From Gracilaria domingensis (taxonomy: Eukaryota > Rhodophyta > Florideophyceae > Gracilariales > Gracilariaceae): DNA of 34,812 nt. A program made the position numbers and the translations under genes. The stretch's first letter is position 1; each line of letters opens with the position of its first letter. The notes below the pieces were generated by a model, which saw only the letters and a program-made list of their open reading frames with translations, ran no database searches and was not told the origin of the DNA. Below are positions 944 through 34,812 of the stretch, one piece after another. The DNA lies in NCBI GenBank assembly GCA_022539475.1, contig VCMS01000424.1:1-34812 (forward strand), written 5' to 3'.

Positions 944-1215
944 CGGAGTATAACGCGAGGATGTGGATGGCACGGATCACGACGGTAACGGAAGGTCGGA
1001 CGTCGGAGGCGCGGCGGCGGCGGCGGAGGGAAGAGATTTATTTTTCTGTGCGAGATTGGACAGGTGTACAGCTTACAACGTTGGAGACCACAGGTTTATA
1101 ACCAGTGGTAGATAATACGAGAAGTACACCCTTGTGTTGAGGTCGACGTGTACCTACGTTCGTTTTTGAACGAAAGCACGTGATTTAAACTCAAAATATA
1201 TTCTCCGTTCTCAGC

Positions 1216-2949
1216 ATGACGTCGATATTGACTGTCGCTCGACCTCCTTCTCCCTTCGGACGACCTTCCCTTGAAGTCTTTGTCGTCGTTTTTCGTTCAT
1301 TTCTTCTTCCCATGGTCTACTACTGTACACATAAGAAGCGTGGGTGTCCCTTCGTTACTCGCCGAGGAGTCTTATCTCTTCAACAGCATGTCAACCATTG
1401 CCCGTTTCGTCTGAAAGCAGCGCTGGAAGACGACAATAGGCGGCCCATTCGGAGAAGCAAACGTCTCAAGCTTTCCGCGCACGCGGCCGCATCTTCCGAA
1501 ACGGTCACTGCCCCTTGTCGCCTTCCCGAGCCTCCGGTGTCCGAGGACATCGTTGACCACACTCCGTGCGCCCCTCCCATTCCGGACACTTCGCATTGTG
1601 TTTCTCCTTCCCCGGGTCCCGCGTCATTAGAGCAAGAACACGGAAGCAGTTCCCGCCCAGTGCCTTCTGAGGAGGCCCTCGGTGATTTGCATATGGATTA
1701 TCTCACGGTTTGTCTGGCTTCAGTAGCTTCCAACCTTGGTCATCGTGAGGCGGACGAGCTAATTGGGCTACTTCGGGACCCGCGATTCTCGCAAAAGCGA
1801 TTCAACGAGACCATAACAAGTTCCAAGCGCTGTACAGAACTGAAAAACGCCATTTTCGAACGATACGCCTCAAAGGACGGTTTCAATCGAAGAACTGTCT
1901 GGCCAGAAGGATGTACGTTCAGCGCCACCCTCTACACGAGAGACCCCGTTCAGACACTTTTGAAACAGCTCCAGTTGGCTAACAACGAAAACACATTCTT
2001 CCACCCTATACCTCAGACCCACTCCACGAAAATATCTCACCCCATGTCCGGCTCTCTCGCGAGAGACGCCACCTCAAAACTTAAGGAAATGGTCATGGGC
2101 TCGTTGGATAGTAGAATAGTGTGGTACTCCCAAGAAATAAGTTACAGTGAATCTTTCGTAGGTCTTCTGCAGGTATACACCGATAAGTCTTCAACAACTC
2201 TAAAGCAAACATCAGTTACCGCCTATCCTCTTCACCTCATATTTCTCAACTTCTCCGACGAGCTACGCCGTAAGTGTATCCGTGATGACCTCACAGTAGT
2301 GGCATACTTCCCTACCACACTGATCGAGGTTTCCGCATCTGAAGCAGACGCAATGCCATTCGTTTCTAGCAAGTCTCTACGCGAGTCCAGGATGCAAATC
2401 CTTCAAGAATCTCTTCGTCAAGTCCTGGAGCCCATTCTAAATCTCACGCAGAAAGTTTTCAGTTCATCGGCGAAGACAAACTAAGTCGAGTGTGCCATCC
2501 TCTGCAAGTTTTCGTGCGGATACTTTTGAGGCTAAAGACATTCTGTTAACTCTTCACGGGACCAAAACGGGGATCTCCTGTCATAGATTCGAGGCCCCTC
2601 CCTCATCTTTATGCAGTAGTATTCTTACTTCATTCACTGGACCCTCTCAAGACCAAACCAAAAGCGTTAGAGATACATACTCAGTTATTCTAGAATATGC
2701 AAAGAAAGACGAGGCAGGAAGAAGTAAATGTCTTGCGAGGGAGAGTATATCTCAGGCGGTACTCTCAAGCGTTCTGATTACATATCTCTTATTCCGTCGT
2801 TCATCGAAACCCCCTTGACGGTAGGATTGATCCAGAGTTTGTTTCTATGCAGTCTGTTGGGAACAAGGAGAGCTCTCTTCGAACAGTTACGCAACTTGCA
2901 TCCAGACAAATTGAAGCTGATTAATACTCCAGAAATCGAAAACCTCTAG
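1216..2949 (+). pseudogene. Transposase-like gene, probably KDZ/Plavaka type, broken
   Basis: A 422-codon frame runs from 1216 to 2484; the better start is probably the ATG at 1312, just before a zinc-finger-like segment. That segment starts YYCTHKKRGCPF and ends QQHVNHCPF, then a basic NLS-like RRSKRLKL and a Ser/Pro-rich linker follow. Near residues 320-390 the order resembles the fungal Plavaka (KDZ superfamily) transposase core: VYTDKSSTTL, then AYPLHLIFLNFSDELRRK, then VVAYFPT. In that family the Asp of the SDK-like motif is catalytic. The frame stops at 2484. Shorter open pieces in other frames continue to 2949, but I could not recognise the C-terminal catalytic half, so this is a truncated relic. 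The family call rests on motif memory and should be tested by profile search. Confidence 0.5.
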
Positions 2950-4572: not shown

Positions 4573-5111
4573 ACGTGCCCACCGGCGTGGGGGGGATCGG
4601 TTGTGTTAGGGTGGCTACCCTAACACAACCGCACCCCCCCGTCCGCGGGCACGTTTTGGCCGGTTTTTCAAAAAATGTGCTTTTTTATGCCCTCGGGCGG
4701 GGGGGTCCGTTCGTGTTAGGGTAGGTACCCTAACACGAACGGACCCCCCCGCCCGCGGGCACGTTTTGGCCGGTTTTTTAAAAAATGTGCTTTTTTATGC
4801 CCTCGGGCGGGGGGGTCCGTTCGTGTTAGGGTACCTACCCTAACACGAACGGACCCCCCGCCCGCGGGCAGGTTTTGGCCGATTTTTTCGAAAATGTGCG
4901 ATTTCATGCCCGCGGGCGGGGGGGTCCGGTCGTGTTAGGGTACCTACCCTAACACGACCGACCCCCCCCCGCCAGCGGGCTCGTTTTCGCCTCATTGTGG
5001 TAGCGTCCACAGACCTCCCAAAACACACACCGCACGCATATCCAGCCAAAACGTAACGTGCCCGCGGGCAGGGTGGTTGAGTTGTGTTAGGGTAGCGACC
5101 CTAACACAACT
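4573..5111. repeat. Tandem array of long perfect palindromes
   Basis: Four units of about 110 bp have palindromes at 4573-4654, 4689-4760, 4799-4869 and 4908-4980, plus a shorter fifth at 5080-5111. Each is centred on GTGTTAGGGTA / TACCCTAACAC and flanked by a G7 run and its C7 partner, giving hairpins of 70-80 nt. The spacers share TTTTGGCCG-like and T-rich AAATGTGC segments. The core contains the telomere-like hexamer TTAGGG in inverted orientation on both sides of each centre. Centres lie near 4614, 4725, 4835 and 4944, so the period is very regular. Units differ by paired substitutions that keep the palindrome, for example TTGTGTTAGGG versus TCGTGTTAGGG. Confidence 0.9.
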
Positions 5112-9413: not shown

Positions 9414-10641
9414 CCCGCTGACCTCTGCCGTTATCGTTCCCTCTCGCCGCTGATTCTTGCCGCTCTCCCTCACCGCCGTTCATCCGCTTCGCTGTTTTCC
9501 CTTTCGTTCCCTTCTCCGTTGCGTCGGGTGTGTTGACCGTATCGTTGGTCGGTGTTGACTTTCTTCTTTCGGTCGTTCGTTCCTCCCTGAGGGCGTTTTG
9601 TTGGTGGTGGTTCGACGTTGACTTTCTATCGTGATTGTGTTTGGGCGCTCGTTGTTGCCCGTGTTGTCGATCGCTATCCGCTTCGTTTGGTCTCCCTCTG
9701 TTATTATTGTTGGGATCCCCACGTCGTCTTTGTGGGTTCTGATCCGAGAGGTTGAGGACCTTGTGTTGTTGAAGTCTGTGCACTTGTGTGTTGTGCTCAG
9801 CATTCGTTTCTGTTGAAGTCCGTGCACTGCGTGTGTGCTCGGCAGGTGTGGTGATCACTTGAGTTTCGGTGCGACGAGCGGTTGATCCGAGCAATCGGGG
9901 ACGTTAGTCTGGCGGCTTGAACCAAAGCATTTGTTCCGTCTTGCGAGTTTCCCACCGGTCCTTAGGGGCAGATAACGGTGTCGGTCGAAAGACCTGGTAT
10001 TCTTCGCGGGGGCATTTGTGGACGGGGTGCCGTGACGTACTGCACTGGACAGGAGGTGGTCCACCTTTATTGTTGCTGACCTGACTTTGTGTTGGGTTCT
10101 TGATCTGTGGCGAAGGCAAACTGAAACGAGCTTTTGATCCGTACTGCTTCGGTGGTGCGGGGAGGCGACGTGTCGTAGGCTGACCTCCTTTTTAGGATCA
10201 GGCCGCTTGTGAACTTCATTGTTTGCTTGCTAGAAGCGTACCTCGGTTTGTCATAGTACCTGCAGTTTCAGGGTCGCGCAAGTTCTTGCAAGAGACCAGA
10301 GAGGGTTTTACTTGGTGAAGGCATATCTTCGGTCATTAACCATCCTCTGGAAGTCTCGTAGAGAGCGACGCACCTTCTCCTAGAACGCAGGAGGAGGTAG
10401 ACTGCAGAAGTCGTTTCTTACCCGGAGAGTCTCCGGGGGTCAGGGGTCCGACTCCCTAGGGTACCAGGAATCTTAGTTCCTTTTGCACCCGACTATTCAT
10501 CTTTATTGTTGTTGTTGTTTGTTGTTATTGTTGTTTGTTGTTGTTTGTTGTTGTTTGCTGTTGTTGTTTACCGCTGTCGTTTGCTATTGCCGCCTGTCTG
10601 CCACCGCATTATCTGGTTCGCTGCAGTTCCTCTCTTACATC
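9414..10641 (+). other. Copia leader, 1.2 kb
   Basis: Long untranslated leader between the primer-binding site and the gag-pol start. It holds a hairpin CCCGGAGA-G-TCTCCGGG at 10421-10437 and a TTG-rich microsatellite-like run at about 10503-10570. The gag-pol frame stays open upstream to 10483 only through this repeat. Packaging or dimerisation signals may lie here; that is inference. Confidence 0.6.
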
Positions 10642-13600: not shown

Positions 13601-14676
13601 TTGTTGGTGAAATGCACCTCAAGCCGAATGACGCAGACGAGTGTGTCTACACCGGGATCATACTGGGTTTCTTGGTTATCATTGCTCTGTATGTTGACGA
13701 CTTGCTGATTGCGAGTCCGAGCATGAAAACCGTGGAACGTGTGAAGGCAGAGCTGTCAAGTCGTTTCCGCATGAAGGACCTCAAAGAAGCTCGCATGGTT
13801 CTTGGATTTGAAATCCATCGAGACAGAACCAAGCGAGAGCTGTACTTGACTCAGTCAGCGTACACGAACAAGGTCCTGGAGCGATTTGGCATGCAGCTGT
13901 CGAAACCCGTTGACACTCCTATGGAGTGCGGTGTGGACTTGTCTGTTGAGGAGGAAGTGCTCACGCATGTACCGTATCGTCAGGCGATTGGCTGCCTCAT
14001 GTATCTGTCTGTGGGAACTCGTCCAGACATCTCATATGCTGTGGCTAAGCTGGCCAAGTATGTTGAGAAGCCGGGAAACACTCAGTGGAAGGCGGTCAAG
14101 CGTGTTCTTCGCTACCTCAATGGCACTACCACGTTCGGGTTGACGTATGGCTCCAGCACCGATTTGCAACTGCACGGCTATGTGGACTCTGACTGGGCTG
14201 GCGATGTTGCCAACCGCAAGTCCACTAGTGGATACTTGTTCATGATGTGCGGAGGTGCTGTGTCGTGGTCGTCTCGTCAACAGGAGGTAGTTGCTCTGTC
14301 GAGTGCGGAGGCTGAGTACGTGAGCTTGTGCTCTGGCACCAAGGAGGCGATCTGGCTTAGGCGACTTTGGAACGGCATTGGCAGTGTGATTGGCATGGAA
14401 GCAGACGGGTCTGTAAAGCTGCTGGTTGAACCAACTCCCATGTATGTTGACAACCAGGGCAGCATTGACCTTGCTCGAAATGGAGTGGTGAACAGGCGAA
14501 CCAAGCATATTGAAATTCGGTTCCACTTCACTCGAGAAGCTCTGCAGGCCAAGTCGATTGTGCTGTTCTACTGCCCGACGGATTCCATGGTTGCCGACAT
14601 GCTGAATAAGCCGCTTGCGCGAGTGAAGCACGAGAGGTTCCGCGAAGCCGGTGGTGTGATCCACATAGAAGTTTGA
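10642..14676 (+). CDS. gag-pol: Copia Gag-Pol polyprotein, 1344 aa
   Basis: The start is taken at MDSFSGLKIEKL because an earlier in-frame ATG leads into translated TTG repeats. Domains in order: Copia Gag (about 1-210); CCHC zinc knuckle CYYCGIKGHIQKNC (about 215); aspartic protease with WIVDSGATAHM (about 281); GAG-pre-integrase HHCC zinc site (LWHARMAH ... CGSC, about 413-455); integrase core with HSD, RTDNGGEY and the Glu of AERFNR (about 479-590); reverse transcriptase with HQMDVKTAFLNGDL (about 928) and YVDDLL (about 1016); RNase H with YVDSDWAG, SSAEAEY and YVDNQ (about 1180-1270). All catalytic residues are present. Gag and Pol share one frame, so Gag excess would need splicing or processing; no shift site is needed. 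It makes virus-like particles and inserts cDNA copies in the nucleus. Confidence 0.97.
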   Translation: MDSFSGLKIEKLGEDNFHTWKQKIQYVLALKDLKNHLTTSAPTDEEELVKWQIRDERARAIIGLTLADEHLDHIRDIETAADAWKAICNVFQRKTLLNRINARRAFYSVKMREDEKMLQFINRVRHLASDLKSMDVNVEEEDIAMAALCGLPDRFEHLIVAIDTTIGDRELTMEFVKSRLLQEEQRMSDRAKEESGGDAALLGRQFRRKSLKSVVCYYCGIKGHIQKNCFKKQRDGANKDQIDAAHPSVHTALNDEQGTGGSDSDFVCLIANGADKATNSDWIVDSGATAHMTYDDSMFQTYETKVSSGVSIGNDSKLQSVGHGSVELDLTVEGSKRKCKLRQVVHVPNLRYHLLSVSQICDLGCTVVFDKEKVCVYKGSKVVAVGRRVKDLYYLCTAADQFTDTDSALVSDLSLWHARMAHVNVEGIKQMARNGVVSGLNVDVAQKLDVCGSCVVGKATRAPTPKQGGERAEHVLDLVHSDISGPVNVKSLGGSHYFVTFIDDHSRYCFLYMLKTKDEVFRMFIKWLRFVENQMGRKVLTITARKSVLRALRTDNGGEYLSNRFSEKLEQYGIEHQRTVPYNPQQNGLAERFNRTLMDLVRSMLHHKNVPKSFWAEALNVSVYVRNRVTCKALPSDVTPFELWHGQKPDLSNLRVFGSHCWYKVVDHKLKKLEERAVEAIFIGYTSGSHGYKLWDSQKKKVIVSRDVRFDECSATESDEHSEDEDYADIDLVDKSVSAEAPTSDTSADHSEDDPSAPASHESTTNASTDEDTTPVPQDEPEVTETQPLRRSTRQRKTPSSWWRGASAFLTASDDTPSSYGDAVSRPDSEAWKKAMKSEYESLMEHDTWDLVPRPADSNVISSKWVYVQKYEASSSGEPTVRYKARVVARGFLQIEGVDFSETYAPVVKFTSIRMILSVTAVRDFHLHQMDVKTAFLNGDLDETVYMEQPMGFTQQGKEDLVCRLKKAIYGLRQAPRQWHAKIYAFLVGEMHLKPNDADECVYTGIILGFLVIIALYVDDLLIASPSMKTVERVKAELSSRFRMKDLKEARMVLGFEIHRDRTKRELYLTQSAYTNKVLERFGMQLSKPVDTPMECGVDLSVEEEVLTHVPYRQAIGCLMYLSVGTRPDISYAVAKLAKYVEKPGNTQWKAVKRVLRYLNGTTTFGLTYGSSTDLQLHGYVDSDWAGDVANRKSTSGYLFMMCGGAVSWSSRQQEVVALSSAEAEYVSLCSGTKEAIWLRRLWNGIGSVIGMEADGSVKLLVEPTPMYVDNQGSIDLARNGVVNRRTKHIEIRFHFTREALQAKSIVLFYCPTDSMVADMLNKPLARVKHERFREAGGVIHIEV

Positions 14677-24100: not shown

Positions 24101-24640
24101 GCGGAGCGCTTCTTTGACCGTTCCCACGGTTTTCCAGCAAATGGAACAGACGAGCCATCTACCAGCTCCACCCTCGAAAGTCTGGGTTTTATAGACACCA
24201 CATGGAGGTCGCAAAAATCACAACCGAGCACAATCGGGGCTGCAAGCGTCTTGCACACAACAAAGTTAACCGAAACAGCGGTCATTCTTAAACGAACCAT
24301 AATTGGTATCATGCCCATCGTAACAATTGGGGGATCATTTGCATCAGCGATTTCCATCAGGGGACCGTAACGGATAAGTGCATGACACTTCTGCGGAAGG
24401 AACGATTCCAGTATACAGTTGGGACCGGCTCCGGTATCCAATAGAGCGACATGATGAACCATGAGATGGTCAGAGAAGCCGAAGTCGGCGTGAACCTTGT
24501 AACTTCTCTTCGAGAGCATCATAACACGTTCCGGACGCTTCGTATTGACCTTCCGTTTCCACGGCAGAACGAGTTGACCCATCTCAGGGTGCGAATCCGC
24601 AAGGGATAAAGATATCGTCTGTCTCTTGCAGATGCTAGTT
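18190..24640 (-). mobile_element. Ty3-like retroelement relic, dense in micro-hairpins
   Basis: The right part encodes a retropepsin and the beginning of a reverse transcriptase on the minus strand, so the element is read right to left. The left part (18190-22935) should hold the rest of pol, but I find no RNase H or integrase motif there, only short frames such as 18439-18918 (+) without known domains. The whole stretch is unusually full of short hyphenated palindromes, roughly one every 20-30 bp, mostly of the form ACC...GGT, CCC...GGG, TCC...GGA or CTC...GAG. LTRs were not found. Boundaries are approximate and set by where the hairpin density changes. Confidence 0.5.
21130..21370. repeat. 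Foreign patch inside the hairpin-rich element
   Basis: Micro-hairpins thin out here, and the sequence contains GGCACTCAAAAAATTGAG. A near match lies in the dispersed repeat at about 25236 (GGCACTCAAAAAATTAAG) and in its inverted copy near 8485. It is probably a small insertion or piece of that repeat family. Edges are estimates. Confidence 0.35.
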
Positions 24641-24669
24641 TTTGGCGAGGGTCGTCCAGAAAGTGGCAA
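22936..24669 (-). pseudogene. pol: Ty3-like Pol fragment: aspartic protease and start of reverse transcriptase
   Basis: The frame has 577 codons, opens with a TTG rather than an ATG, and is therefore a piece of a longer polyprotein. The retropepsin is clear: VALLDTGAGPNC at about residues 75-85 carries the catalytic DTG, and PIVLGCDFCDLH at about 145-156 is the usual second motif. Residues about 395-440 match the start of Ty3-type reverse transcriptase: VRSLFDS, then APVLVVPKKD, RSLQFCLDY and GLNAV. After that the match ends. The remaining 140 residues are acidic, unlike a polymerase, and no YxDD motif follows. Gag is also missing. The frame is intact over 1.7 kb even though it is packed with hairpins. 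It could be a domesticated protease gene; a relic is simpler. Confidence 0.75.
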
Positions 24670-24748
24670 GGGTCGTCCAGTAAATTTTTTGAAAAAATAT
24701 CGAGATCAATTATTTCAAAATTTGAAGATAATTGTTTGGGTCGTCCAG
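24649..24748 (+). repeat. Three direct repeats GGGTCGTCCAG
   Basis: GGGTCGTCCAG (first copy GGGTCGTCCAG read as AGGGTCGTCCAG) occurs at 24649-24659, 24670-24680 and 24738-24748, the last two around an AT-rich patch. They lie at the right edge of the Ty3-like relic. They may be remnants of its end or of a small nested element. Confidence 0.5.
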
Positions 24749-25082
24749 AATCGCTGTGCAGTAAATACTGGTGGGTTTTCCACTCGTGCTAGTTCTTTAG
24801 TCGAGGGCTACCTGAACGGTATTGCGCGAAGTCTAGGTTCAGTTTCCTTTAAGGTGCATATTACACGATACCTTCTGCGGAATGATACCCTGCAACGCAT
24901 GGAATACTAGTGCTAGTACAGATGATGCCCATTATGAAATCATACCGTTTTATTCGTATCTATTCTTCTATCGACCGCTTTTGCTAACCACTACTTCGCT
25001 ATATTACATGTACCATTTCCCCATGATGAGGCGGGTGTAGGCGCAATCTGCGGCAGATGCCGCAGAGGGCACCTGCACCAAA
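24749..25082. other. No recognised gene
   Basis: Contains the motif GTGCTAGT several times and a strong hairpin at 25048-25065 with 8-bp arms (CTGCGGCA / TGCCGCAG, loop GA). Frames are short and unassigned. Confidence 0.4.
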
Positions 25083-25141
25083 TTGCGGTAACGGTAGAAC
25101 ACATACGCACTCCGAGAGGATGAGGCGCGAAGCGCCTCATC
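25083..25141. repeat. Dispersed repeat end with perfect hairpin (copy B)
   Basis: Matches 7-62. The hairpin 25119-25141 has perfect 10-bp arms, GATGAGGCGC and GCGCCTCATC, around GAA. It directly joins the repeat that starts at about 25137. Confidence 0.65.
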
Positions 25142-25575
25142 GTCTGTGTTCTGCAAAGTGGAATATAGTCTGTTCGCTTTGGAAACTAAGCTAGTTTTGG
25201 GGCTATTTGGGGCGCGCGAGGGGGTAGCAGAGGCTGGCACTCAAAAAATTAAGAAATTTTGGAATATTAAATTCCATTTCGCGCAGTTTAGTGCTTGGGT
25301 CTCCTAGTTTTTGTAGAGGTTCTACTTCGCCGCACCACCCCATTCACTCTTTTCCGCGACCCTCTCTCAAAACTGCACTCGTGCTAGTTTGCGTTTCCAT
25401 TTTCTCCCATGTTGCAATGCCAATCGCAATTCATCCCACCTCAATCGTCCCATCACTTCTTCCCAGTCCACACCACTCCCGCTTTTTACCCATTTCTCGC
25501 CCATCACGCGTTCATTTTGTAGAAGTCAGGTGGACAACTCTCCCCCTTCTCGTATACCCGCCTCGCCCCAAAACG
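25137..25575 (+). repeat. Dispersed repeat, forward copy
   Basis: Direct counterpart of the inverted copy at 8130-8600. It starts CGTCTGTGTTCTG and ends near CCTCGCCCCAAAACGG, just before the stop of the coiled-coil gene. The repeat may be the 3' region of an element that encodes this gene on the minus strand. Confidence 0.8.
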
Positions 25576-25578
25576 GCT

Positions 25579-26508
25579 TCAAATCCCTCCCATCCTTCTC
25601 TCCTCCTGTCCCCTCAGAATCCCCTTCGCAGTCCGCGCTACCTCCGCCGCACTCCTAAACCCAGTCACCACCGGAGCTCCCACTCCCTCCCGCGGCACCT
25701 CCTCCACCACCTTCTTCATCTCCTTACGCCTCTTCTTCAGACGGCTCTTCTCATCCCCAACCCCACCACCCTTTGTCTTCGGTGTCACAGGAGACCCCTT
25801 CTGCACCGCCACCCTTCCCACACTTCCCTTCTCCGTCTTTCCCTCCACACCTCCTTTCACCGTCTCCTCTTCCACCAATCTTTGCCTCTTGCACAGCTCC
25901 TTCACCTCCTTCTCCAGCACGTCCAACCTCTCGTTCAGAACCCTATTCTCCTCCCGCAACTCTCCAACCTCCCTTCCCGCACACCCCACTATCCCATACA
26001 CATGATTTCTCATCTCCACTCCCAATACCGACAACGAATTCCGCAGGCTCGAAATCGCCTCAACCGAAACACCACTAATACTCCCACTCAGCACCACACC
26101 GCCCATTTCCGTTACAATCTCCACAATTCCATCGTCCAATTGCTCCTTCATCACCAACCCCAACATCCCCACCCTCGCCTTCATCTCCCCCACAAACCGC
26201 ATCTCCCTGTCACCCTCTCCGCCCCCACTCTCTATCTGGTCTCCAACCTCTAACTGACTCAGATGCACCGCACCCCTTCTCTCCATTGCGACCCCCTCCA
26301 CCTCCAATTCTACCCCCTTCTCCACCTCATCACCATCCCCTCTCCTCGCCTCACACTTCTTTCATTCCTCAGCCACTTCCTTCTTCTGCGACATCCGACC
26401 AGCCGCCGTAATCACGTCCTCTTCCCGCTTTGGTGACGGCGTCTGCGGTACCTCCTTCCCCTCCAACAGCACCCACAGCTCCTCATCCTTCACGTATCCG
26501 TTCGACAT
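25579..26508 (-). pseudogene. Coiled-coil protein gene of a repeat, one in-frame stop
   Basis: Starting at the ATG 26508-26506 (MSNGYVKDEELWVLLEGKEV), the frame runs to the stop at 25579 and is interrupted once by TGA at 26364-26362. Both halves are in the same frame, so a single nonsense change explains the break. The product would be about 308 residues. The middle has a heptad-like Leu/Glu/Lys region (VGELREENRVLNERLDVLEKEVKEL across about 25 residues), followed by a basic stretch with KSRLKKRRKEMKK. This architecture is seen in ORF1-type proteins of some retroelements and in many unrelated coiled-coil proteins; no family is recognised. Its 3' flank is a dispersed repeat, which supports an element origin. 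TGA readthrough is possible but unsupported. Confidence 0.55.
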
Positions 26509-26832
26509 CTTCAGAAAAAGAAGTAGTAGTTGGATCGAAGTTTCCGCTGCGATACAGTGCAATCGAGCTAAACTGTGCTGTCCACCCCCACTGTCCAACC
26601 ACACGGGCTATATCCAGCACCATGATTGTCCCTGTTTCCCTCATCTCATTTCCCGCCAAAACATCTACTGTACACCTCCGCACCTTCCACTATTTAAGCG
26701 CCATCTCTCTGTCCCCTCTTCACATAGTCCCCACCCACCTCGCCTCGACCGGCGATATTTTTCTCTTCCACCATAACCCCACTCGATGGTTATAGCAAAA
26801 CAGGAAGATATTGCCAGTGGAGGCAAGCTAGG
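26509..26832. other. No recognised gene; upstream flank of coiled-coil gene
   Basis: Likely 5' region of the minus-strand coiled-coil gene. A plus-strand frame at 26430-26795 overlaps it and shows no domain. CACTATTTAAG near 26690 gives CTTAAATAGTG on the minus strand, a weak TATA-like candidate about 180 bp upstream of the ATG. Confidence 0.35.
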
Positions 26833-27080
26833 GACTAGTGATTGTACTTAGAGTTGCTCACCCTCTGTCTCGACTGGGGGCATGTTCTTCTTCCGTCACA
26901 TCCTTTGTGGGTTGTGACAAAAAAAGAATATGTCACCACTCGACACCGGATGGGTAACAATGATAGCACGTAGAGTAGTTCATCCTCCCTCTCAGCGTCC
27001 ACTGGGGATATATTTATGTTCTCTCACATCCTTTCCCGGTTGTCATACAAGAGAAATACATCTCCAATGGAGACGGAGAA
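26833..27080. repeat. Two diverged tandem copies, about 120 bp each
   Basis: The first copy, about 26833-26952, and the second, about 26953-27078, share CACATCCTTT, GGTTGT, the CTCACCCTC/TTCATCCTCC phrase, ACTGGGG and the final ATACATCTCCA/ATATGTCACCA. Divergence is substantial. They lie just downstream of the epimerase fragment. Confidence 0.6.
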
Positions 27081-27141
27081 TTTAGTTGTGATAACACGTA
27101 AAGGTAACAATGTAATAAACAATAAATTTATGCTACTATCT

Positions 27142-27462
27142 CTAACCAACCTTTCGAAAACCAGCTATGACATGAGCTGGGTTACTCGAGCCAAAGATGG
27201 CAGATCCTGCAACTGAAATGTTTGCACCGGCCTTCACTACTGCTTTCACAGTACTCAGTCCAATACCTCCATCCACCTGTATCCCTATTCTTCGGTACAC
27301 CTTCCTTGCATGTCGCACCTTATCAAGAACACCCTCCATAAACGCCTGTCCTCCAAACCCTGGCTCCACCGTCATCAACAATAACATGTCTACAACTCCT
27401 TCGTTCATAAGTGCTTCTACGACCTTTATAGACGTATTCGGGCGCAATCCAACTCCATCCTT
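27142..27462 (-). pseudogene. RPE: Ribulose-phosphate 3-epimerase, C-terminal fragment
   Basis: The frame encodes the last half of the TIM-barrel enzyme that interconverts ribulose 5-phosphate and xylulose 5-phosphate in the pentose phosphate and Calvin cycles. Diagnostic motifs are MTVEPGFGGQAF, the catalytic Asp in QVDGGIG, and AGANISVAGSAIFG. It ends at the normal C-terminus. Upstream, the frame is closed by TAA at 27465-27463 just before KDGVGLRPNTS, and the first half of the barrel is not found in the next few hundred bases. The gene is either truncated or this is the last exon after an intron ending in AAAAG; no matching donor or upstream exon is seen, so a 5'-truncated pseudogene is more likely. 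Confidence 0.8.
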
Positions 27463-27859
27463 TTAATTATGGCAATCCAAGTGAAGCTATAGAACCCGTT
27501 CACGTCATTTATGAAGCCAAAATGGCTCCTTTCATCCTGTATTCAAGCTCCCCGTAACTCGTACTTTACAACTACTTTACAACTCAGGTTCGAAATCAGT
27601 TTCATTCATTGCACACTTTCTACTGTTCCACCTACCTTTCATAAAACATCATCACACTTTGTGGCTTGTCGTCTCATACAAGGCCTATCATTCATTCAGT
27701 ACAATCAAATATCATACATTTCGCTCACTTTCACAAAGTGAACCATGTTCCCGTTCTGCGCTTCCCAACCGTTTGTACTTACGTATCACTCTTTACCCCA
27801 GCAGTTCTCCGCCCCATCTTCCCTTTTTATCGTCACACAAAAACAATCGAACACTTGCA
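27463..27859. other. Intergenic; no recognised gene
   Basis: AT-rich spacer between divergent genes, the epimerase fragment to the left and the reductase-like gene to the right. It probably contains the reductase promoter. The plus frame stays open back to 27659, but the protein match begins only after the ATG at 27860. Confidence 0.45.
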
Positions 27860-28762
27860 ATGAACTCCCAGTCCGACATGCCTCCCACTCCGCCTCCGAG
27901 TCCCAGATACTCTGACGTCCCTCAGGCCTCATCTCCCGCCCGAAGGACTCGGGCCGTTATTGTTGGAAGGGGGCGTATAGGTACCATGCTGGCGAACGAA
28001 GAAGATACGGTCATTTCCGCACACGAATTCTGCAGCATGGCTGCTACCTCTCATCTTTCTGATGTACCGATACTAGTTTGTGGAAGAACGAACACCCTGG
28101 AGACCGTAATTCAGGCTTGCTTTTATTCGCTCAGAGAGAATCTCGTTTTCTTCCAGAATGGAGACATCATACCATTGCTTTCGAAGCTCGGTGTGGACAA
28201 ATGTTCAAAAGTTGTCCTATACGTTGGTGTCCCCTCAAGAAACGCAGCTCCGCAGGATGGTGTCACTCCTCAAAGTCCGGATGGTCTCACTGTCGCAACA
28301 GGAAAGTGGGCCTCCAACGTTGCAGACAGGTTTAGGTCTATGGGTCTCACTTGCGGGGTTGTCGACGAAGACACATTTCTCGTAAGCTATTATGAGAAGC
28401 TCGTGTGGCTATCAGCGTTCAACATCGTCGGGGCCTCAAGAGGTTTCATTCCTATGGACGTAGTCGGTACGGAGTGCAGTACGGTTGTGCTCACAATAAT
28501 GAAAGAGCTGTTGAAGATAGTTTCGCTTAAGACAGCTACTACTTTCAACCTGGAAGAGACCGTTGGGCGACTTCTTGCATATGGGAAAACTCTCGTTGGC
28601 TTCCCTACTTCTTTCTCCGACTTTCAGTTTAGGAACGCGTACTTCTACGACTTTTCCCGCCAAGAAAGAAACATTGTAGGCGGTGACCCCGCTCCTTTTC
28701 ATACAAACTACGTCAACGTTGTTAAGGAAAAGTTATCCCCCTCCCCATTCCCCCAGCTTTGA
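27860..28762 (+). CDS. Ketopantoate reductase-like (PanE/ApbA) protein, 300 aa
   Basis: The start at 27860 (MNSQSDMPPTPPPSP) is preferred because the upstream in-frame part is Ser/Arg/Tyr-rich leader-like DNA with no domain. The product has an NADP-binding Rossmann loop, VIVGRGRIGTMLA, near residue 35, followed by a typical middle domain. The segment YEKLVWLSAFNIVGA near residue 175 resembles the conserved K-x-x-x-N catalytic patch of ketopantoate reductases. The C-terminal helical domain includes TSFSDFQFRNAYFYD. True PanE makes pantoate for coenzyme A; many eukaryotic paralogues have unknown substrates, so the function is given only at family level. No transit peptide is obvious. It is an intact single-exon frame. 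Confidence 0.75.
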   Translation: MNSQSDMPPTPPPSPRYSDVPQASSPARRTRAVIVGRGRIGTMLANEEDTVISAHEFCSMAATSHLSDVPILVCGRTNTLETVIQACFYSLRENLVFFQNGDIIPLLSKLGVDKCSKVVLYVGVPSRNAAPQDGVTPQSPDGLTVATGKWASNVADRFRSMGLTCGVVDEDTFLVSYYEKLVWLSAFNIVGASRGFIPMDVVGTECSTVVLTIMKELLKIVSLKTATTFNLEETVGRLLAYGKTLVGFPTSFSDFQFRNAYFYDFSRQERNIVGGDPAPFHTNYVNVVKEKLSPSPFPQL

Positions 28763-29388
28763 GGTTAGAACACATGACTTTTCGGTGTTCTGAACCTTTT
28801 AGACATAGTTAGACATAAAATTTACTTTATCGAAATGACCTGTTCCTATTACATTACTTATATTGTTCTTCCTTCTGTGGTTCAAATATGCCCCTTTAAA
28901 TCCTACATCCGTTATCACTAATACTTCGCTAAGATTTTGCTAGATAGAAAATGGTCATTCCATATCATTAAAGTGCACGATACTAGTAACGAAACAAGTA
29001 CAAAAATTGTGATATTTCTGAAGAACTAAGCGTTTGCATTACTTGGGGCACCCGTATAAAGTAAGGTAAACCTTTTATGGGTTTCAACCCGTAATGGAGG
29101 TTGTTTTACTCTTCTTGATTTCTAAGCTCATGTTAAAGATATTTACAGTTTTCTTTACCAACTTGAACCCGTACATATAATTTATGACTAAATCATCCTT
29201 TCTTTACTTCAAATCGATGCAAAAACTTCTCCTCCTAGTAACGTTTTAAAACAGTACTACAATACCCGTATATGGTCGTTCTTAGACTCTTTTTATACTA
29301 CGAAACACCTTGTGAACATCAATCACATCCTTCAATTCGTATACCCACACCCATTTGCAAAACGAACCCTTTCGAAAGCTTTCAAAAC
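28763..29388. other. Intergenic; no recognised gene
   Basis: AT-rich spacer between two plus-strand genes. It should hold the 3' end of the reductase-like transcript and the promoter of the phosphatase gene. The repeated phrase TTATGGGTTTCAACCCGTAATGG near 29076-29098 includes the small palindrome GGGTTTCAACCC. Confidence 0.5.
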
Positions 29389-30261
29389 ATGTATAACTCA
29401 GAAGTTAGAGCCCAAGAAGTAACTCCTCAGCAGCTGGCTAACGAAATATTCGAAAATGGCTACGCCGTGATTAGTGATGTTGACGGTACTCTGAAAAGAG
29501 CTGGGGAGAACATTCCTGCCGAAACAGTCAAATGCATGAAGTACATCAACGCACTCGTTGGTTTCGGAATTGCTACTGGGCGAGATATAGAGGATGCCGA
29601 GAGTTTCATGGAGCACCTGGGTGGCTACACTTTTGGCATCTCTGGAAACCAAGGCGCACGGGTGAGATTATCCAATGGTACCGAAATTGATCAGGACCTT
29701 GACAGGGAAGGCTACGAAAGATGTGCAGCCGAACTTGAGAGACTTGAACTCTCCTTAAATGAATCGCACGGACTTCACGAAGAGCGTCAACAAGCAGTGG
29801 TGAGCACTAGAAAAGACAGTGGACTCCCTAACTTCACGTACAATGGACTGTCGAAGTGGAAAACAGAAGTTAACTCCGGTATTTCAAAAGTGTTGACATC
29901 CTTTCCGAACCTGGTTGCGTACCCTCAAGATGAAAACTGTGACATAGGGGACATTCGTTTCACGAAAAATAGTGGGGCGCTAGCCTTGGTTGAAAACGAC
30001 CCCCAGTTCGACACACATTTAATCGTTGCTTTCGGGAATGCTTCCAATGATGGCCCTCTATATGAAATAGCAACCCTGGCAGTTCATGTGAAGGGAGAAG
30101 ACCATCCAGCAGCGGTAACATATCTTGTTGATGGGGTGGAGGACGTGCATGAGACCATCAGAAGGGTGCCAGAACTGTACAGGTACAGAAAATGCAAGTG
30201 TCAATGGTTTAGAAATGCTCTTGGAATTTGTTTCAAGTGCTACGATGCCTGTAATACTTAG
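29389..30261 (+). CDS. HAD-superfamily (Cof/IIB-type) phosphatase, 290 aa
   Basis: The start at 29389 (MYNSEVRAQEVTP) fits the paralogue on the opposite strand, which begins similarly just before ANGYGILS; an earlier in-frame ATG at 29272 adds an unconserved leader. Motif I is VISDVDGTL with both Asp residues, at about residues 28-36. Motif II is the Thr of IATGRD at about 60. Motif IV is FGNASNDGPLYE at about 225-236. These are the hallmarks of Mg-dependent HAD phosphatases with a C2-type cap, such as sugar-phosphate phosphatases. The substrate cannot be told. The Cys-rich tail (KCKCQWFRNALGICFKCYDAC) is unusual and could bind metal or a membrane. The gene is intact and convergent with a broken copy. 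Confidence 0.8.
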   Translation: MYNSEVRAQEVTPQQLANEIFENGYAVISDVDGTLKRAGENIPAETVKCMKYINALVGFGIATGRDIEDAESFMEHLGGYTFGISGNQGARVRLSNGTEIDQDLDREGYERCAAELERLELSLNESHGLHEERQQAVVSTRKDSGLPNFTYNGLSKWKTEVNSGISKVLTSFPNLVAYPQDENCDIGDIRFTKNSGALALVENDPQFDTHLIVAFGNASNDGPLYEIATLAVHVKGEDHPAAVTYLVDGVEDVHETIRRVPELYRYRKCKCQWFRNALGICFKCYDACNT

Positions 30262-30312
30262 CTATGATATGAGATCTCAGTAATAAAAGTGTGTATATAT
30301 CTCAATACCCTT

Positions 30313-31190
30313 TTATGAATCATGGTGGTTTTTATCGTGCTGCTTTTCCTCGTAGCCATACAACAGAGCCACCAACATAATTGTCGAATGTACATCCTCC
30401 ACGCTTTCGAACAGGTTGTGTACTCCACCCGGGATACAATCTTCTTTGACGTGAACGCCGTACACGCCTACCTCATGCAAAGGCCCGTCGCTCAAAGCAC
30501 TTCCGAACGTCACGACGTCATCCGTATCAATAAATCTCGGTTCATTATCCACAAGATTTTCTCCTCCGCTTCCTTTTGTGTATCGCTTGTCCACAATTTC
30601 TCAACTTTTATCGCCGGGATAGATAACAAACGCATCCATCTTCTGCAACAGGTTCCCAATAGCAGAATCCACTTCTTCTTTCCACTGCCACAGTTTGTTG
30701 TACACGAAATTGGGAACGCCACTATCACTTCTGGTCTCCACGAACCCCTTGTCATCATCATTCACAATACCATGCCTCCTATTCAAATCCCTTGCCAGGA
30801 ACAGTAGTCCGTCAACAGTGTGGTCAAGGGTGTGATCATTGAATGCACCCTTAATTTCCCTCTGTCAGAGAAACGCAGGAAAGCTCCATAATTCGCCGAG
30901 ACACCAAACTTATAGTCTCCGAGTCCTTCCATTTTCCCCTCCACGTCGCCCACATCACCCCCTGTGACAAGTCCGAAACCAACACGTTCGTCAATGAACT
31001 TCATACACTTCACAACTTCTTCTGGAATTGACTCTCCTTCTCTTCTCAACGTTCCATCAACGGAACTTAATATACCGTAACCATTGGCATATATGAACTT
31101 AGACAAGGTATTTGGTGAAATTTCCGCCAAGTCTCTCTGTTCCTCTGCCATTTTTCCTGATACAGTCACCATACTGCCCAAGTACCGCAT
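30313..31190 (-). pseudogene. Broken HAD phosphatase paralogue
   Basis: This is a diverged copy of the gene at 29389-30261, on the other strand and tail to tail. Shared landmarks include VKCMKFIDERVGFG, DSGVPNFVYNKL, VDNEPRF and DGPLHEV. It has a -1 frame change near 30858 at a GGG run and an in-frame TGA at 30603-30601. The catalytic nucleophile is also lost: SDVDGT of the intact copy reads SSVDGT. Motif II reads VTGGD instead of ATGRD, and motif IV FGSALSDG instead of FGNASNDG. Loss of these residues means the copy would be inactive even if the frame breaks were sequence errors. Confidence 0.8.
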
Positions 31191-31485
31191 AGACAGGAAC
31201 TGTATAGACTTCTCAGTTTCATACTTCTCTTAAAAGCAACCTTAAGTGCAGTTTCAGAAATGTTAGGACGCTACATGTTCAATTGCGAATTGACTGGTGC
31301 CACCAATGATGTTAACGATACCGAGCATTTGGCATGTTGCAATTAGACGCAACTGGACCAAAGACGTTTGACATTTGTTCAATTACCAGCCTGCCGCACC
31401 TTTTCTTTGTTCATATGTAAGCCTTGTAATAGTATACTACTCTTAATACTCGCAAGACACACATAATTTACTAATCATCTCATTC
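31191..31485. other. Intergenic; no recognised gene
   Basis: AT-rich spacer between the start of the broken phosphatase copy and the end of the oxygenase-like frame, both on the minus strand. No motif is called. Confidence 0.5.
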
Positions 31486-33437
31486 TCATCCACTTCGAGG
31501 CGCTCGCAGCCTCATTATTGGCAAATCGTCATCACTACTACTCTCGAGCACTTCGGTTCTACCGGCGTCCGCTTCCACACCAATCTCCACGACCACTTGG
31601 TCTTCGTCCATGTCAACCGCCCCACCCTCCTTATCGGACAACAGTTCATCCTCCGCCTCCTCCTCCTCGTCACCATTGACAAACGTGGGTCGGAATCCCG
31701 CACCCGATGAACAGCATCAGGTAGTGCGTAGCCCTCTGGTACCATGTACATGTGGTATCTAACCAGCAAATCCATAGACTCGGGCCTATCCACCTTGTCC
31801 TTCCCACTTGCTCCAGCATGTGTCACATCACCACGGCCCACGAATACAGAGTACGGTGGGATGATTATCTTCTTCGCTGGATACACCTCAGACATCACTC
31901 GCAACTGTTGGTTGTTCATCCCCACCAGTTGATGGCTTCCAGCGCTCACCCAGAGAGGAAAGCCCTCTTTCCCAGAGGCCATTACAAAGTATCCGGGGTT
32001 GCCAGTATTCATTGTTTCCTTCGTAACCAGACCACTGAAGTCGGTGTGCAGCGTCTGGCGCTTGCACTTTCTCGTCGTCCCCAGAAATCGACCACCAGTT
32101 TTCGGAGTGTACATCTTCACAGCTTCCCTTTCATTGTCCCATAGTCCCAAAGCCGCAGCAATTGTACCCATTCGAACATGAAGTAAATCACGCGACCTTA
32201 CAACCCACCTGAGCTCCTCATTATCCTCCGGCTTCTCCACCCGTGTCGACATCACTCTCCCCTCAAATGGTCCATCGCTACCGTCCTTCCATCCTTCATC
32301 ATCGTTGATTATTTGAACAAACGACTTCTGTTCCTCTCCTTTCCGTATATCCGGCATCGCTCCATACTCATTCTCGAAGAAGTCCACCAACTTCCCCGAC
32401 ACATCTCCGAACTCCCGAACTTCTTCCAACTCCTCCCATTTAGGGACACCATTATCCGTCGCAAAGCCATCAAGCACGCAATATCCATTCTGCCTTAGCT
32501 CAGCTTGCATTCGGGCGAAGAACATTTGCCCAAATTCGTCATGCTCCTTCGCAGCAACCCACAGCACCTCTTCATCATCCATACCTGTCGGTCGAGTACG
32601 AGGATACTGCATACCAAATGTCTCCGCCCGTAGGCGATGTTCAGCCCTTGCAGCGTGCCAAAAGACAAGATGGTGTACATCTCTGAGATTCGAGACACTT
32701 AGCAGCTCCGACCTATGTCCCTTCGGCAAGTGAATGACTCTGAGCCAGGGGTCCTTGTGCTCAATTACGTTCTTCCCTTGCCATTCCTGCGGTCTCAGCC
32801 TGGCATACCCGCACCATGATGGGTTCAGTGGGCCATCATATGGGTCACCTCGAACAAGTCCGTGCTCCTCAGATTCCGGAAGAGCTGTAGGTAACTCGTC
32901 ATCAAATGACCCCCCACCTGTCTCTTGCTGATCGTCTGGCGCAGCATCTTTCTCGACGGTGACAACCCGTGGAACTGTCACAGAAAGAAGCTCTTCGTCA
33001 TCCACAAATGCAGAACTGCCTGCGTTCTCTGCATTCGCTCCCTCTCCCAATGCCACGAACTGAACCTTCATCGACCTTCCTCTCAGCACATGTTCATTTA
33101 GTTGAGACATCAGGTCATCCGGTGTCATGCTGTTCAGAGTAGATCTCATCTGTTGTGTGAAAGTCTTTCTCCGTTTCTTCCTCGGCGGAGCCCGCTGTTC
33201 TTCTTCAGAGCTATCCAGAACTTCTATGGCACCTCGATTTCGGCCGTGCTCAATTTCCCTATAACTCACCTGCGCCCGTTCTCGTGCACTTCTTCGCGGC
33301 TCCCCTTCTTCACTGGCAGATGTTGCAGCAGCAGCAGCGGGAGTCCTCCTCTTCGTCACGGACTGCTTCACTGGTGCGGGGGCGGAATTACCTTGAGCAT
33401 CGTCCGCAATCGATTCTGAACGGAAGTCGTGGCAGTT
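31486..33437 (-). CDS. 2OG-Fe(II) oxygenase-like region (second part of a probable ParB-oxygenase fusion)
   Basis: The main frame runs from an upstream stop at 33438-33440 to 31515. It has no ATG before residue 75 (counting from GTG at 33371), so it probably does not start on its own. It begins with a Ser/Glu linker and a strong NLS-like PRKKRRK. Near 291-303, ELRQNGYCVLDGF resembles the usual entry to a double-stranded beta-helix oxygenase. Iron ligands are likely His442 and Asp444 (QTLHTDF) and His518 (GRGDVTHAG), and the 2-oxoglutarate Arg is likely 538 (LVRYHMY). Near 31705 a -1 shift leads to an acidic tail (GDEEEEAEDELLSD ... SSSDDDLP) that stops at 31486; without the shift the tail becomes Arg/Trp-rich and unnatural. 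Substrate unknown; a nuclear nucleic-acid or protein hydroxylase is inference. Confidence 0.6.
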
Positions 33438-34789
33438 CTAATTGAGTTCGTCCTGCTCCGAACACGCGGCAATGTGTTGAAGTTCACAACTTGTCCCAAA
33501 AGGAACTGATACACAGCTGCGTTGTTGTCTGGGTCTTCAACGTCATCTTCATTCGATGGAGCAGAAAGACTGACTTCGCGTTTCAGGAACACTTCCATGG
33601 ACTCTTCCTCGTTCAGTTCATTCCTCACTGCTCTAGCCGCGCGGAACAGAGACACTGCTCTATCATAAAAGAAACCTCGAACCTCCTCAAAGCTTTTCCA
33701 TTGCTTTGTCTTCGTCGACTTGCCCTTCAATAGAAACATCTGAAGACAATCAAGAATGAAGGAAAACTCCTCGGCATCCAAAACATATAGCGGAGTATGG
33801 GACAGATGTGTGAGACCTATGTCACTCACAGTCTCACATATATCCTCGAAATGGGCCAGCATTCCCTCACGAGACATGAGTTGCAGGGCGACATTGGCAT
33901 ATCTCAGGTACTGACGCTCTTGCACAGTCCCAATCAGTTGGCTCTCCTTCAACACTTCTGTCACTTCTGCAGGATCCACGTCTGCCGGCGTCACCCCCTC
34001 AACATCTTCAATTAGAATGGCGACCACACTAACTATAGAGTGTATCTTGTCTGCAAACATCATCCTTCGCATGGTACTCGTCGACTCATTGAGGTACGAA
34101 GCAACACATAACAATTCCTTCATCCCAATGGGCCTCCCATCTCTTCGTATCAGCAGATTGCAACGCCAAAACTTGGCTAATCGCTTCCACTTCGGTGCAC
34201 CAGTCGCTGCCAAATATTGTATAGCTTTCAGACGATGCAAACCATCTACAATGAAGCACTTCTTCGTTAGGCGTCCCTTGTCAGTATCCCTCTCTCCCGT
34301 AGTAGCATCTTGTAAGGCCACCACTGGAGAACCCATCGACTGCAATATCCCCCGCTCCTCCATACTCTTCACAAGGGCTTCAACGTGGCGTTTACTTACT
34401 CCACGGAGTAAATTGGGCGGAGTGTCCACCAGAGTGATGTCAACAGTAACAACAACCATCCGGTACTGATTGAGGTTCACCTTTGGTACCTTCTGACGAA
34501 TTCGTCTGTACGTCTTGCTCCGAGTAGGTGTCCCTTGTGTTCCAGACCGCTCGCCAGAAACACTTGAACGTGCCATTCTTGCGGACAGAAGCACAACGTC
34601 ATCGTCCTGCTGCTCCGCAGTTTCTGGTGCAGTTTGGGGTACAGATGGACCAGCTCCTTGCGCGGATTGCGCATCCGCGTCTGGAAGGGGACCTTTCATG
34701 ATCTCATCTTCCTCCTCTTGCACAGCCGTCCCCTGCTGAACCGTCTGTTTCGACGCAGAAGTTCCCCTTGTGTCGACGGTCTGATTCAT
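33368..34789 (-). CDS. ParB-like nuclease-fold protein, 473 aa
   Basis: The start ATG is at 34789-34787, 24 bases from the window edge. An acidic, low-complexity N-terminus is followed at about 105-195 by a ParB/sulfiredoxin-type fold: VTVDITLVDTPPNLLRGV, then VEALVKSMEERGILQS and FIVDGLHRLKAIQYL. The DGLHR at about 182-186 takes the place of the GERR/GxHR signature used for nucleotide binding. The rest is helical and not recognised. The stop TGA at 33370-33368 overlaps the next frame, whose first usable GTG shares bases with it. The downstream frame lies in -1 phase and is open for 68 bases upstream of this stop. A single fused protein of about 1,100 residues is therefore plausible. ParB folds are rare in eukaryotic nuclear genes. 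Confidence 0.7.
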   Translation of the reverse strand: MNQTVDTRGTSASKQTVQQGTAVQEEEDEIMKGPLPDADAQSAQGAGPSVPQTAPETAEQQDDDVVLLSARMARSSVSGERSGTQGTPTRSKTYRRIRQKVPKVNLNQYRMVVVTVDITLVDTPPNLLRGVSKRHVEALVKSMEERGILQSMGSPVVALQDATTGERDTDKGRLTKKCFIVDGLHRLKAIQYLAATGAPKWKRLAKFWRCNLLIRRDGRPIGMKELLCVASYLNESTSTMRRMMFADKIHSIVSVVAILIEDVEGVTPADVDPAEVTEVLKESQLIGTVQERQYLRYANVALQLMSREGMLAHFEDICETVSDIGLTHLSHTPLYVLDAEEFSFILDCLQMFLLKGKSTKTKQWKSFEEVRGFFYDRAVSLFRAARAVRNELNEEESMEVFLKREVSLSAPSNEDDVEDPDNNAAVYQFLLGQVVNFNTLPRVRSRTNSIRTATTSVQNRLRTMLKVIPPPHQ

Positions 34790-34812
34790 CGCAGGAAGAA
34801 GCCTTTTTTCGA

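What the first reader, a model, noticed from the sequence alone, without database searches (positions are those of the whole stretch)
31486..34789. ParB-fold domain linked to a 2OG-Fe(II) oxygenase-like domain in one locus
Two domains normally seen apart sit head to tail on one strand: a ParB/sulfiredoxin-like fold (DGLHR) and a beta-helix oxygenase-like domain (HTD ... H ... R). A basic NLS-like linker joins them and an acidic tail ends the protein. ParB folds can bind nucleotides and DNA, and some oxygenases of this fold modify bases or chromatin proteins. In fungi, TET/JBP oxygenases are associated with KDZ transposons, and a KDZ-like relic lies in this same window. A new nucleic-acid or chromatin modification protein is a reasonable hypothesis. 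The domains are read by eye; the function is inference.
Basis: partly seen in the sequence, partly recalled or inferred. Interest (0 to 1): 0.75.

Follow-up and report, generated by a model that had tools for sequence, protein, structure and literature searches.

The report
Giant seaweed transposon with epigenetic enzymes
The odd two-domain gene is cargo of a roughly 23-kilobase jumping gene that has multiplied in the genome of the red seaweed Gracilaria domingensis; the element also carries a DNA-methylating enzyme, so it may write and erase chemical marks on itself to escape silencing.

Summary
On the minus strand the window encodes a ParB-like domain (VDGLHR) and a 2OG-Fe(II)-oxygenase-like domain (HTD, GSH, H, R), split here by a one-base frameshift; the acidic tail is in a third frame. 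Seven of 89 scored copies have one open frame of 1294-1308 aa, and three distant database proteins hold the same pair in one chain. ParB has weak but consistent profile support. The oxygenase rests on conserved motifs: Pfam, hhalign, PDB searches and AlphaFold2 did not confirm it.

It is not a single-copy gene. It is cargo of a giant Plavaka-type DNA transposon (22.8 and 23.5 kb in two copies seen with both ends) in Gracilaria domingensis. Order: Plavaka transposase; a convergent gene fusing an N4/N6 DNA methyltransferase to a SET domain; a hub of 30-bp palindromes (915 exact sites genome-wide, reversed control 0); the divergent ParB-2OG gene. The window's right terminus is base 25141.

Best reading: a self-directed writer/eraser pair, with ParB perhaps reading the palindromes. 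ParB-methyltransferase, SET and TET/JBP transposon cargo are in print; my searches found no ParB-2OG or methyltransferase-SET report, but the key Bostrychia paper is not held.

The parts
25141..34812 (-). Right-hand part of one copy of the giant Plavaka-type transposon; its left part lies beyond the assembly gap that begins at 34813
   Evidence: aligns over 9.3-9.7 kb to C120, C18 and C69 and in pieces to C22; gap 34813-41571
25141..25158 (-). Right terminus, CTTTGCAGAACACAGACG on the minus strand
   Evidence: same end with different flanks in window, C18, C22, C69, C120
33368..34810 (-). N-terminal frame of the ParB-2OG gene (first 201 codons of the open reference copy are missing beyond the gap)
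33911..34525 (-). ParB-like domain, VDGLHR at 34232-34249
   Evidence: four PHROG hits, all ParB-like, best 2.2e-4; no Pfam ParB_N hit
31515..33437 (-). C-terminal frame: basic linker (33162-33188) and oxygenase-like domain
31746..32099 (-). Oxygenase-like core: TGGRFL, HTD, GSH, distal H, R
   Evidence: invariant over four divergent proteins; fold not confirmed
31486..31700 (-). Acidic C-terminal tail in a third frame, stop at 31486
   Evidence: in frame in P0003, P0004 and L027
30783..31229 (-). Truncated HAD-like cargo gene; longer frame in other copies (L022:8262-9218)
   Evidence: L022 frame PF08282 0.0044, below cut-off
29242..30258 (+). HAD hydrolase cargo gene, opposite strand
   Evidence: PF08282 1.5e-12; HAD-IIB models just under cut-off
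27515..28759 (+). Cargo ORF, 415 aa, Rossmann-like by eye, no family match
27142..27462 (-). Ribulose-phosphate 3-epimerase fragment inside the element
   Evidence: PF00834 7.1e-26
24616..25145 (+). Left 530 bp of another copy, interrupted by this one
   Evidence: left terminus at 24616
1189..2481 (+). N-terminal part of a Plavaka transposase of another copy
   Evidence: PF18759 9.2e-7
4600..5110 (.). Five palindromes of the hub type, in another rearranged copy whose right end is at 8593

Best explanation
Shown: the locus is cargo of a giant Plavaka-type DNA transposon of Gracilaria domingensis. Left to right the element carries a Plavaka transposase, a convergent gene for a 1055-aa protein with an N4/N6 DNA methyltransferase and a SET domain, a hub of 30-bp palindromes, and, divergent from the methyltransferase gene, the ParB-2OG gene, then HAD-like and other cargo. 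Inferred: the ParB-like domain takes the protein to a DNA site, most plausibly the palindromes between the two divergent genes (a parS-like array or operator). There the oxygenase-like domain oxidises a methyl mark on DNA (6mA, 4mC or 5mC) or on histones, while the methyltransferase-SET protein writes marks on DNA and chromatin. Together they would form a self-directed writer/eraser pair that keeps the divergent promoter active or marks copies as the element's own. Rough odds by step: transposon and gene order 0.97; ParB domain 0.8; 2OG-type oxygenase 0.7; demodification of DNA or chromatin 0.45; palindromes as the ParB target 0.3.
For: At least 89 scored copies (of 729 candidates) at 92-100% identity. 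Sharp right end in five copies and left end with a short inverted-repeat match. Plavaka PF18759 1.7e-14 and 4.2e-18, 38 of 42 scored transposase copies without internal stops. N6_N4_Mtase 1.8e-16 and SET 1.2e-8, both in one 1055-aa frame and both over cut-off in two of five relatives. Fixed gene order: 37 methyltransferase-ParB pairs (89 ParB and 113 methyltransferase copies listed), 8 of 42 transposase-methyltransferase, 6 of 42 transposase-ParB, no other arrangement of these three pairings within the limits used. ParB-like PHROG hits. Motifs invariant over four divergent proteins. Active-site letters mostly kept in copies and pN/pS 0.55. 915 exact palindromes, reversed control 0, in 15 of 18 fetched copies, between the two divergent gene starts in C120. 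Precedents: PMC12477816 and PMC12730594 (passages and sections).
Against: No 2OG profile hit, hhalign probabilities at most 5%, failed structure models, nothing in PDB. Pfam ParB_N finds nothing and the three relatives have no ParB profile hit. Two of 18 covered copies lack the distal H. Eleven of 19 copies, the window's included, carry the frameshift between the domains. ParB pN/pS (0.58) and oxygenase pN/pS (0.54) show only moderate constraint, the linker 0.88. Three of 18 fetched copies have no palindrome. No binding, enzymatic, methylation or expression data.
Confidence: 0.45

Rival explanations
1. The ParB-2OG protein is a DNA-binding transposition cofactor or anti-silencing regulator, like TnpA of En/Spm or VANC of Vandal elements (TnpA recalled; Vandal mentioned in PMC12730594), and its C-terminal domain is structural or inactive.
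For: Oxygenase fold unconfirmed; clustered palindromes suit a site-specific regulator.
Against: H, D, H, R and GSH invariant over four divergent proteins and mostly kept in the copies.
Confidence: 0.25
2. The oxygenase-like domain acts on proteins (histone demethylase or hydroxylase) rather than on DNA, paired with the SET domain of the neighbour gene.
For: SET domain in the divergent gene; transposons with SET genes are in print (PMC12730594 introduction passage).
Against: The same neighbour is also a DNA methyltransferase, and the ParB-like domain suggests DNA addressing.
Confidence: 0.2
3. The cargo genes have little or no function for the element; they are captured sequences carried along, as the gene fragments elsewhere in the element suggest.
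For: Host-like fragments in or beside copies: ribulose-phosphate epimerase, phytoene desaturase; broken frames in 11 of 19 copies.
Against: The same two fusion proteins exist at 21-41% identity in other sources; pN/pS 0.55; fixed divergent pairing.
Confidence: 0.07
4. An endogenous virus or a host gene family rather than a transposon.
For: Phage-like methyltransferase and ParB matches.
Against: Plavaka transposase in the same unit, defined ends, many near-identical copies, no confirmed relative in IMG/VR; no viral structural family among the proteins scanned.
Confidence: 0.03

Closest known systems
[quoted passage not shown]
   Same: Giant algal DNA transposon; ParB-like domain and N4/N6 DNA methyltransferase as cargo; proposed to bind and modify its own element.
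   Different: There ParB and methyltransferase are one 1104-aa protein in a Sola-1 element. Here ParB is fused to an oxygenase-like domain, the methyltransferase to SET, as two divergent genes in a Plavaka-type element.
TET/JBP-encoding fungal DNA transposons, including Plavaka (PMC12730594, abstract, sections 3.2.2 and 4.2, passages)
   Same: DNA transposons, some Plavaka, carrying an oxygenase gene thought to counter silencing.
   Different: No TET/JBP profile match here, ParB fusion, and an added methyltransferase-SET gene.
SET-encoding transposons such as HarbingerS and oomycete MuDR (named in PMC12730594, passage)
   Same: A SET histone methyltransferase gene carried by a transposon.
   Different: Here SET is fused to a DNA methyltransferase, in a Plavaka-type element.
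Giant EnSpm elements with accessory genes in red algae (Petroll et al. 2025, Bostrychia; known only through PMC12477816; not held)
   Same: Giant red-algal transposons with several accessory genes.
   Different: Not readable here, so it may already describe relatives of these genes.
Bacterial ParB-parS (recalled)
   Same: ParB-like domain and palindromic sites near the gene.
   Different: parS is about 16 bp (recalled); no partition ATPase was looked for or seen; the domain is fused to an oxygenase-like domain in a nucleus.

Membership tests
Plavaka DNA transposon | Plavaka transposase domain (PF18759) | tested here: met
   1.7e-14 (L024), 4.2e-18 (L026), 9.2e-7 (window 1189-2481), over cut-off
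Plavaka DNA transposon | Termini TGT..ACA (PlavakaA) or CATCA..TGATG (PlavakaB), as given in PMC12730594 | tested here: not met
   Ends here read CGTCTGT..ACAGACG in most copies seen, with variants in C28 and C315; the published types are fungal, so I write Plavaka-type
Plavaka DNA transposon | 2-3 bp target site duplication | tested here: inconclusive
   AT/AT in C158, none in C315 or C28: 1 of 3 copies with both ends
KDZ transposon | KDZ transposase profile | tested here: not met
   Only Plavaka listed for the transposase ORFs L024 and L026 at E<=5
ParB N-terminal domain | Pfam ParB_N (PF02195) match | tested here: not met
   No hit in the protein or in the genome at E<=1
ParB N-terminal domain | Match to ParB-like phage families and the G/D-x-H-R box | tested here: met
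   Four PHROG hits, all ParB-like, best 2.2e-4; VDGxHR in four divergent proteins. The three relatives have no ParB PHROG hit
2OG-Fe(II) oxygenase superfamily | HxD..H..R iron and 2OG triad in conserved columns | tested here: met
   Invariant in four divergent proteins; 55 of 20000 shuffles
2OG-Fe(II) oxygenase superfamily | Profile match to a known 2OG family | tested here: not met
   No Pfam hit at E<=10; hhalign to two Gracilaria PhyH and phage 2OG proteins at most 5%
2OG-Fe(II) oxygenase superfamily | Double-stranded beta-helix fold | tested here: inconclusive
   AlphaFold2 mean pLDDT 33 with four sequences
TET/JBP dioxygenase | TET/JBP profile match | tested here: not met
   Not listed in Pfam scans
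Beta-class N4/N6 DNA methyltransferase | PF01555 and the DPPF/DPPY motif (motif recalled) | tested here: met
   1.8e-16; TDPPFN in the 1055-aa frame, DPPYN in P0008-P0012
SET domain methyltransferase | PF00856 match | tested here: met
   1.2e-8; over cut-off in P0008 and P0010, below in P0011, no hit in P0009 and P0012
Algal ParB-methyltransferase transposon proteins | ParB and methyltransferase in one protein | tested here: not met
   They are in two divergent genes here
ParB-parS system | ParB protein binds the palindromic site | not testable with these tools
   Palindrome array shown, binding not

The most novel reading that the evidence does not exclude
A eukaryotic transposon carries a complete self-recognition and marking system from bacteria-like parts: a parS-like array of perfect 30-bp palindromes between two divergent genes, a ParB-guided oxygenase that removes marks there, and a DNA methyltransferase fused to a histone methyltransferase that writes them, so that DNA and histone marks on the element are set by the element and not by the host.
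Probability: 0.3. Interest if true: 0.88.

Novelty: new variant of a known kind. Interest (0 to 1): 0.7.

Why it matters
Transposons with a single epigenetic cargo gene are in print. One with a probable writer (DNA methyltransferase fused to SET) and a probable eraser (ParB fused to an oxygenase-like domain), divergent around a palindromic array, would be a self-contained epigenetic control unit in a multicellular red alga. It makes testable whether transposons mark themselves, which base or histone is changed, and whether a ParB-type site can address an enzyme in a nucleus. It also explains two misnamed proteins in the public annotation.

Tried and rejected
Single host gene near a relic: rejected by copy number and linkage. 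KDZ: the profile is Plavaka. Virus: no confirmed relatives in IMG/VR; ParB-2OG proteins no match in phages; the methyltransferase part does match phage DNA methyltransferases, in 189 records at under 60% identity; the eight rows listed cover 26-28% of the query. TET/JBP: no profile match. Phytanoyl-CoA-dioxygenase kinship: two Gracilaria PhyH proteins and phage P-SSM2 2OG proteins compared by hhalign. Scores were 21.9-23.4 against PhyH L047 (60 shuffles, maximum 19.6) but 15.7-16.9 against PhyH L048 (shuffle maximum 23.3) and 16.4-17.5 against the phage set (shuffle maximum 17.4); probabilities at most 5%; the aligned stretch shown (L048) is the GSH motif. Not significant. More PhyH sequences: none found. 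Structure prediction failed for both domains, so I ran no fold search. Prokaryote relatives of the pair: none confirmed. A near-perfect 336-347 bp outer inverted repeat in C120 is not general: in the nine other hubs checked the inverted repeats have other lengths and 76-99% identity. Target duplication: 1 of 3.
Full report
Where it is. The window is contig C424:1-34812 of a 77.9 Mb assembly. Two proteins of the same family, on contigs of the lengths of C250 and C22, are labelled Gracilaria domingensis (lengths), and a paper gives that genome as 78 Mb (PMC10388701, passages). The window ends at an assembly gap (34813-41571), after which an inverted stretch of the same repeat follows.

Observation. 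Two minus-strand frames, 33368-34810 and 31515-33437, carry VDGLHR and HTD, GSH, HAGA, RYHMY, with a basic linker; the acidic tail is in the third frame and stops at 31486. The gene is broken in this copy by a frameshift between the domains and another before the tail. Of 19 copies compared, 11 (the window's included) share the first frameshift and 8 do not. Seven of 89 scored rows show an uninterrupted 1294-1308 aa frame. An assembly error, a spread frameshifted subfamily and programmed frameshifting were not separated.

It is a repeat. The ParB frame gave 89 scored matches of 92-100% identity among 729 candidates. Five copies end at the same base (window 25141) with different sequence beyond it. 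The left terminus begins CGTCTGTCTCTTGCAGATGC, the right ends GCAGAACACAGACG, with variants at the outermost bases in C28 and C315. Three copies were seen with both ends: C315 52962-75756, C28 18856-42335, and the shortened C158 41975-52641. A 2-bp target duplication shows in one of the three.

Gene order. At the left lies a 1100-aa ORF (L024:46-3345) matching Plavaka, 1.7e-14 (4.2e-18 in L026). Of 1758 candidates 42 were scored, 38 without internal stops. Convergent to it is a gene that in C164 is one 1055-aa frame; pieces from C22 and C120 match N6_N4_Mtase (1.8e-16) and SET (1.2e-8). Of 574 candidates 113 were scored. Divergent from that is the ParB-2OG gene, then HAD-like and unassigned ORFs to the right end. 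Linkage over these lists: 37 methyltransferase-ParB pairs (89 ParB, 113 methyltransferase copies), 1592-3929 bp apart; 8 of 42 transposase-methyltransferase, 3554-3774 bp; 6 of 42 transposase-ParB, 933-11673 bp; no other arrangement of these three pairings within the distance limits used. Pairings with the right end were few: ParB 4 of 89 (1 other arrangement), transposase 3 of 42 (none), methyltransferase 3 of 113 (3 others). By chance 0.0073 methyltransferase copies are expected beside each ParB copy. The lists hold only the best-scoring copies.

Relatives. P0005 (1102 aa) matches at 32% over 26% of the query and has VDGQHR near its N-terminus. P0006 and P0007 match the C-terminal region of P0005 at 29% over 91% and have VDGMHR. 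Over the whole length Gracilaria is 28, 21 and 21% identical to P0005, P0006 and P0007; V, D, G, H and R of the ParB box and H, D, GSH, H and R of the oxygenase-like domain are invariant. Their contigs could not be read. No relative was confirmed in IMG/VR, GTDB contigs or phages. The methyltransferase-SET protein has five relatives: P0008 (41% over 96%) and P0010 (28% over 89%) carry both domains over the cut-off, P0011 has SET below it, P0009 and P0012 have no SET hit.

Domain identity. ParB: the isolated window piece has four PHROG hits at E<=1, all ParB-like (best 2.2e-4); the same piece of L027 has four, three of them ParB-like; the full frame has four, three ParB-like. Pfam ParB_N has no hit, and the three relatives have no ParB PHROG hit. 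Oxygenase: 53 of 341 aligned columns are invariant, among them HxD, distal H and R; 55 of 20000 shuffles place such a set. By eye the order HxD, PLWVxxGSH, HAGA, R resembles phytanoyl-CoA-dioxygenase-type enzymes, but Pfam, hhalign, PDB and AlphaFold2 do not confirm it. Over 19 copies VDGLHR is kept in 17; HTD in 17 (one partly, one not covered); GSH and R in 18 (one not covered); the distal H in 16 (two changed, one not covered). pN/pS is 0.55 overall, 0.58 for ParB, 0.54 for the oxygenase-like part, 0.28 for residues 471-668 and 0.88 for the linker.

Hub. Between the divergent genes lie nested inverted repeats and a 30-bp palindrome, GTCGTGTTAGGGTA-NN-TACCCTAACACGAC. Allowing four substitutions it occurs one to six times in 15 of 18 fetched copies (none in L020, L021, L024), often about 110 bp apart. 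Genome-wide there are 915 exact places and none of the reversed control; the first 50 places were listed, so how many lie in intact hubs is not known. The window has five, with up to three mismatches, at 4600-5110 in another rearranged copy. That the palindromes are the ParB target is inference from ParB-parS (recalled).

Prior work. [quoted passage not shown] 2025 for giant EnSpm elements in red algae; that paper is not held, nor are two papers by Iyer and colleagues. PMC12730594 (abstract, sections 3.2.2 and 4.2, passages) describes TET/JBP genes in fungal transposons, Plavaka among them, and mentions SET-encoding transposons. PMC11244446 (passages) reports Plavaka-flanked giant repeats in Amoebidium. 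Ten paper searches ran; in their listings I saw no report of a ParB-2OG or methyltransferase-SET transposon protein. Most subscription papers are outside that library.

Verdict. The oxygenase fold and the mechanism remain to be shown. My confidence in the full mechanism is 0.45, in the transposon and its gene order 0.97.

Noticed in passing
window 7420-7797 (-), with palindromes 4600-5110 and an element right end at 8593: A phytoene desaturase fragment (TIGR02731 1.2e-40) beside hub palindromes and a right terminus: perhaps a rearranged copy that captured part of a host gene.
   Followed up: partly
window 27142-27462 (-): Ribulose-phosphate 3-epimerase fragment (PF00834 7.1e-26) inside the element near its right end.
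   Followed up: partly
window 24616-25145: Left 530 bp of another copy, cut by the insertion of the copy described here.
   Followed up: partly
window 10477-14676 (+): A 1399-aa open frame of a Copia retrotransposon (RVT_2 1.9e-70, gag, integrase).
   Followed up: no
contig C424 41572-45139, beyond the window: An inverted stretch of the same element follows the assembly gap; real or a scaffolding artefact.
   Followed up: no
P0003 and P0004: Public annotation calls these element proteins cell-wall-anchored protein SasA and mediator subunit 15-like, most likely misnamed; in both, the part with the HxD motif is missing from the predicted product.
   Followed up: no
hub palindrome, e.g. window 4929-4958: The palindrome contains TTAGGG/CCCTAA, the form of a common telomere repeat (recalled); possibly coincidence.
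   Followed up: no
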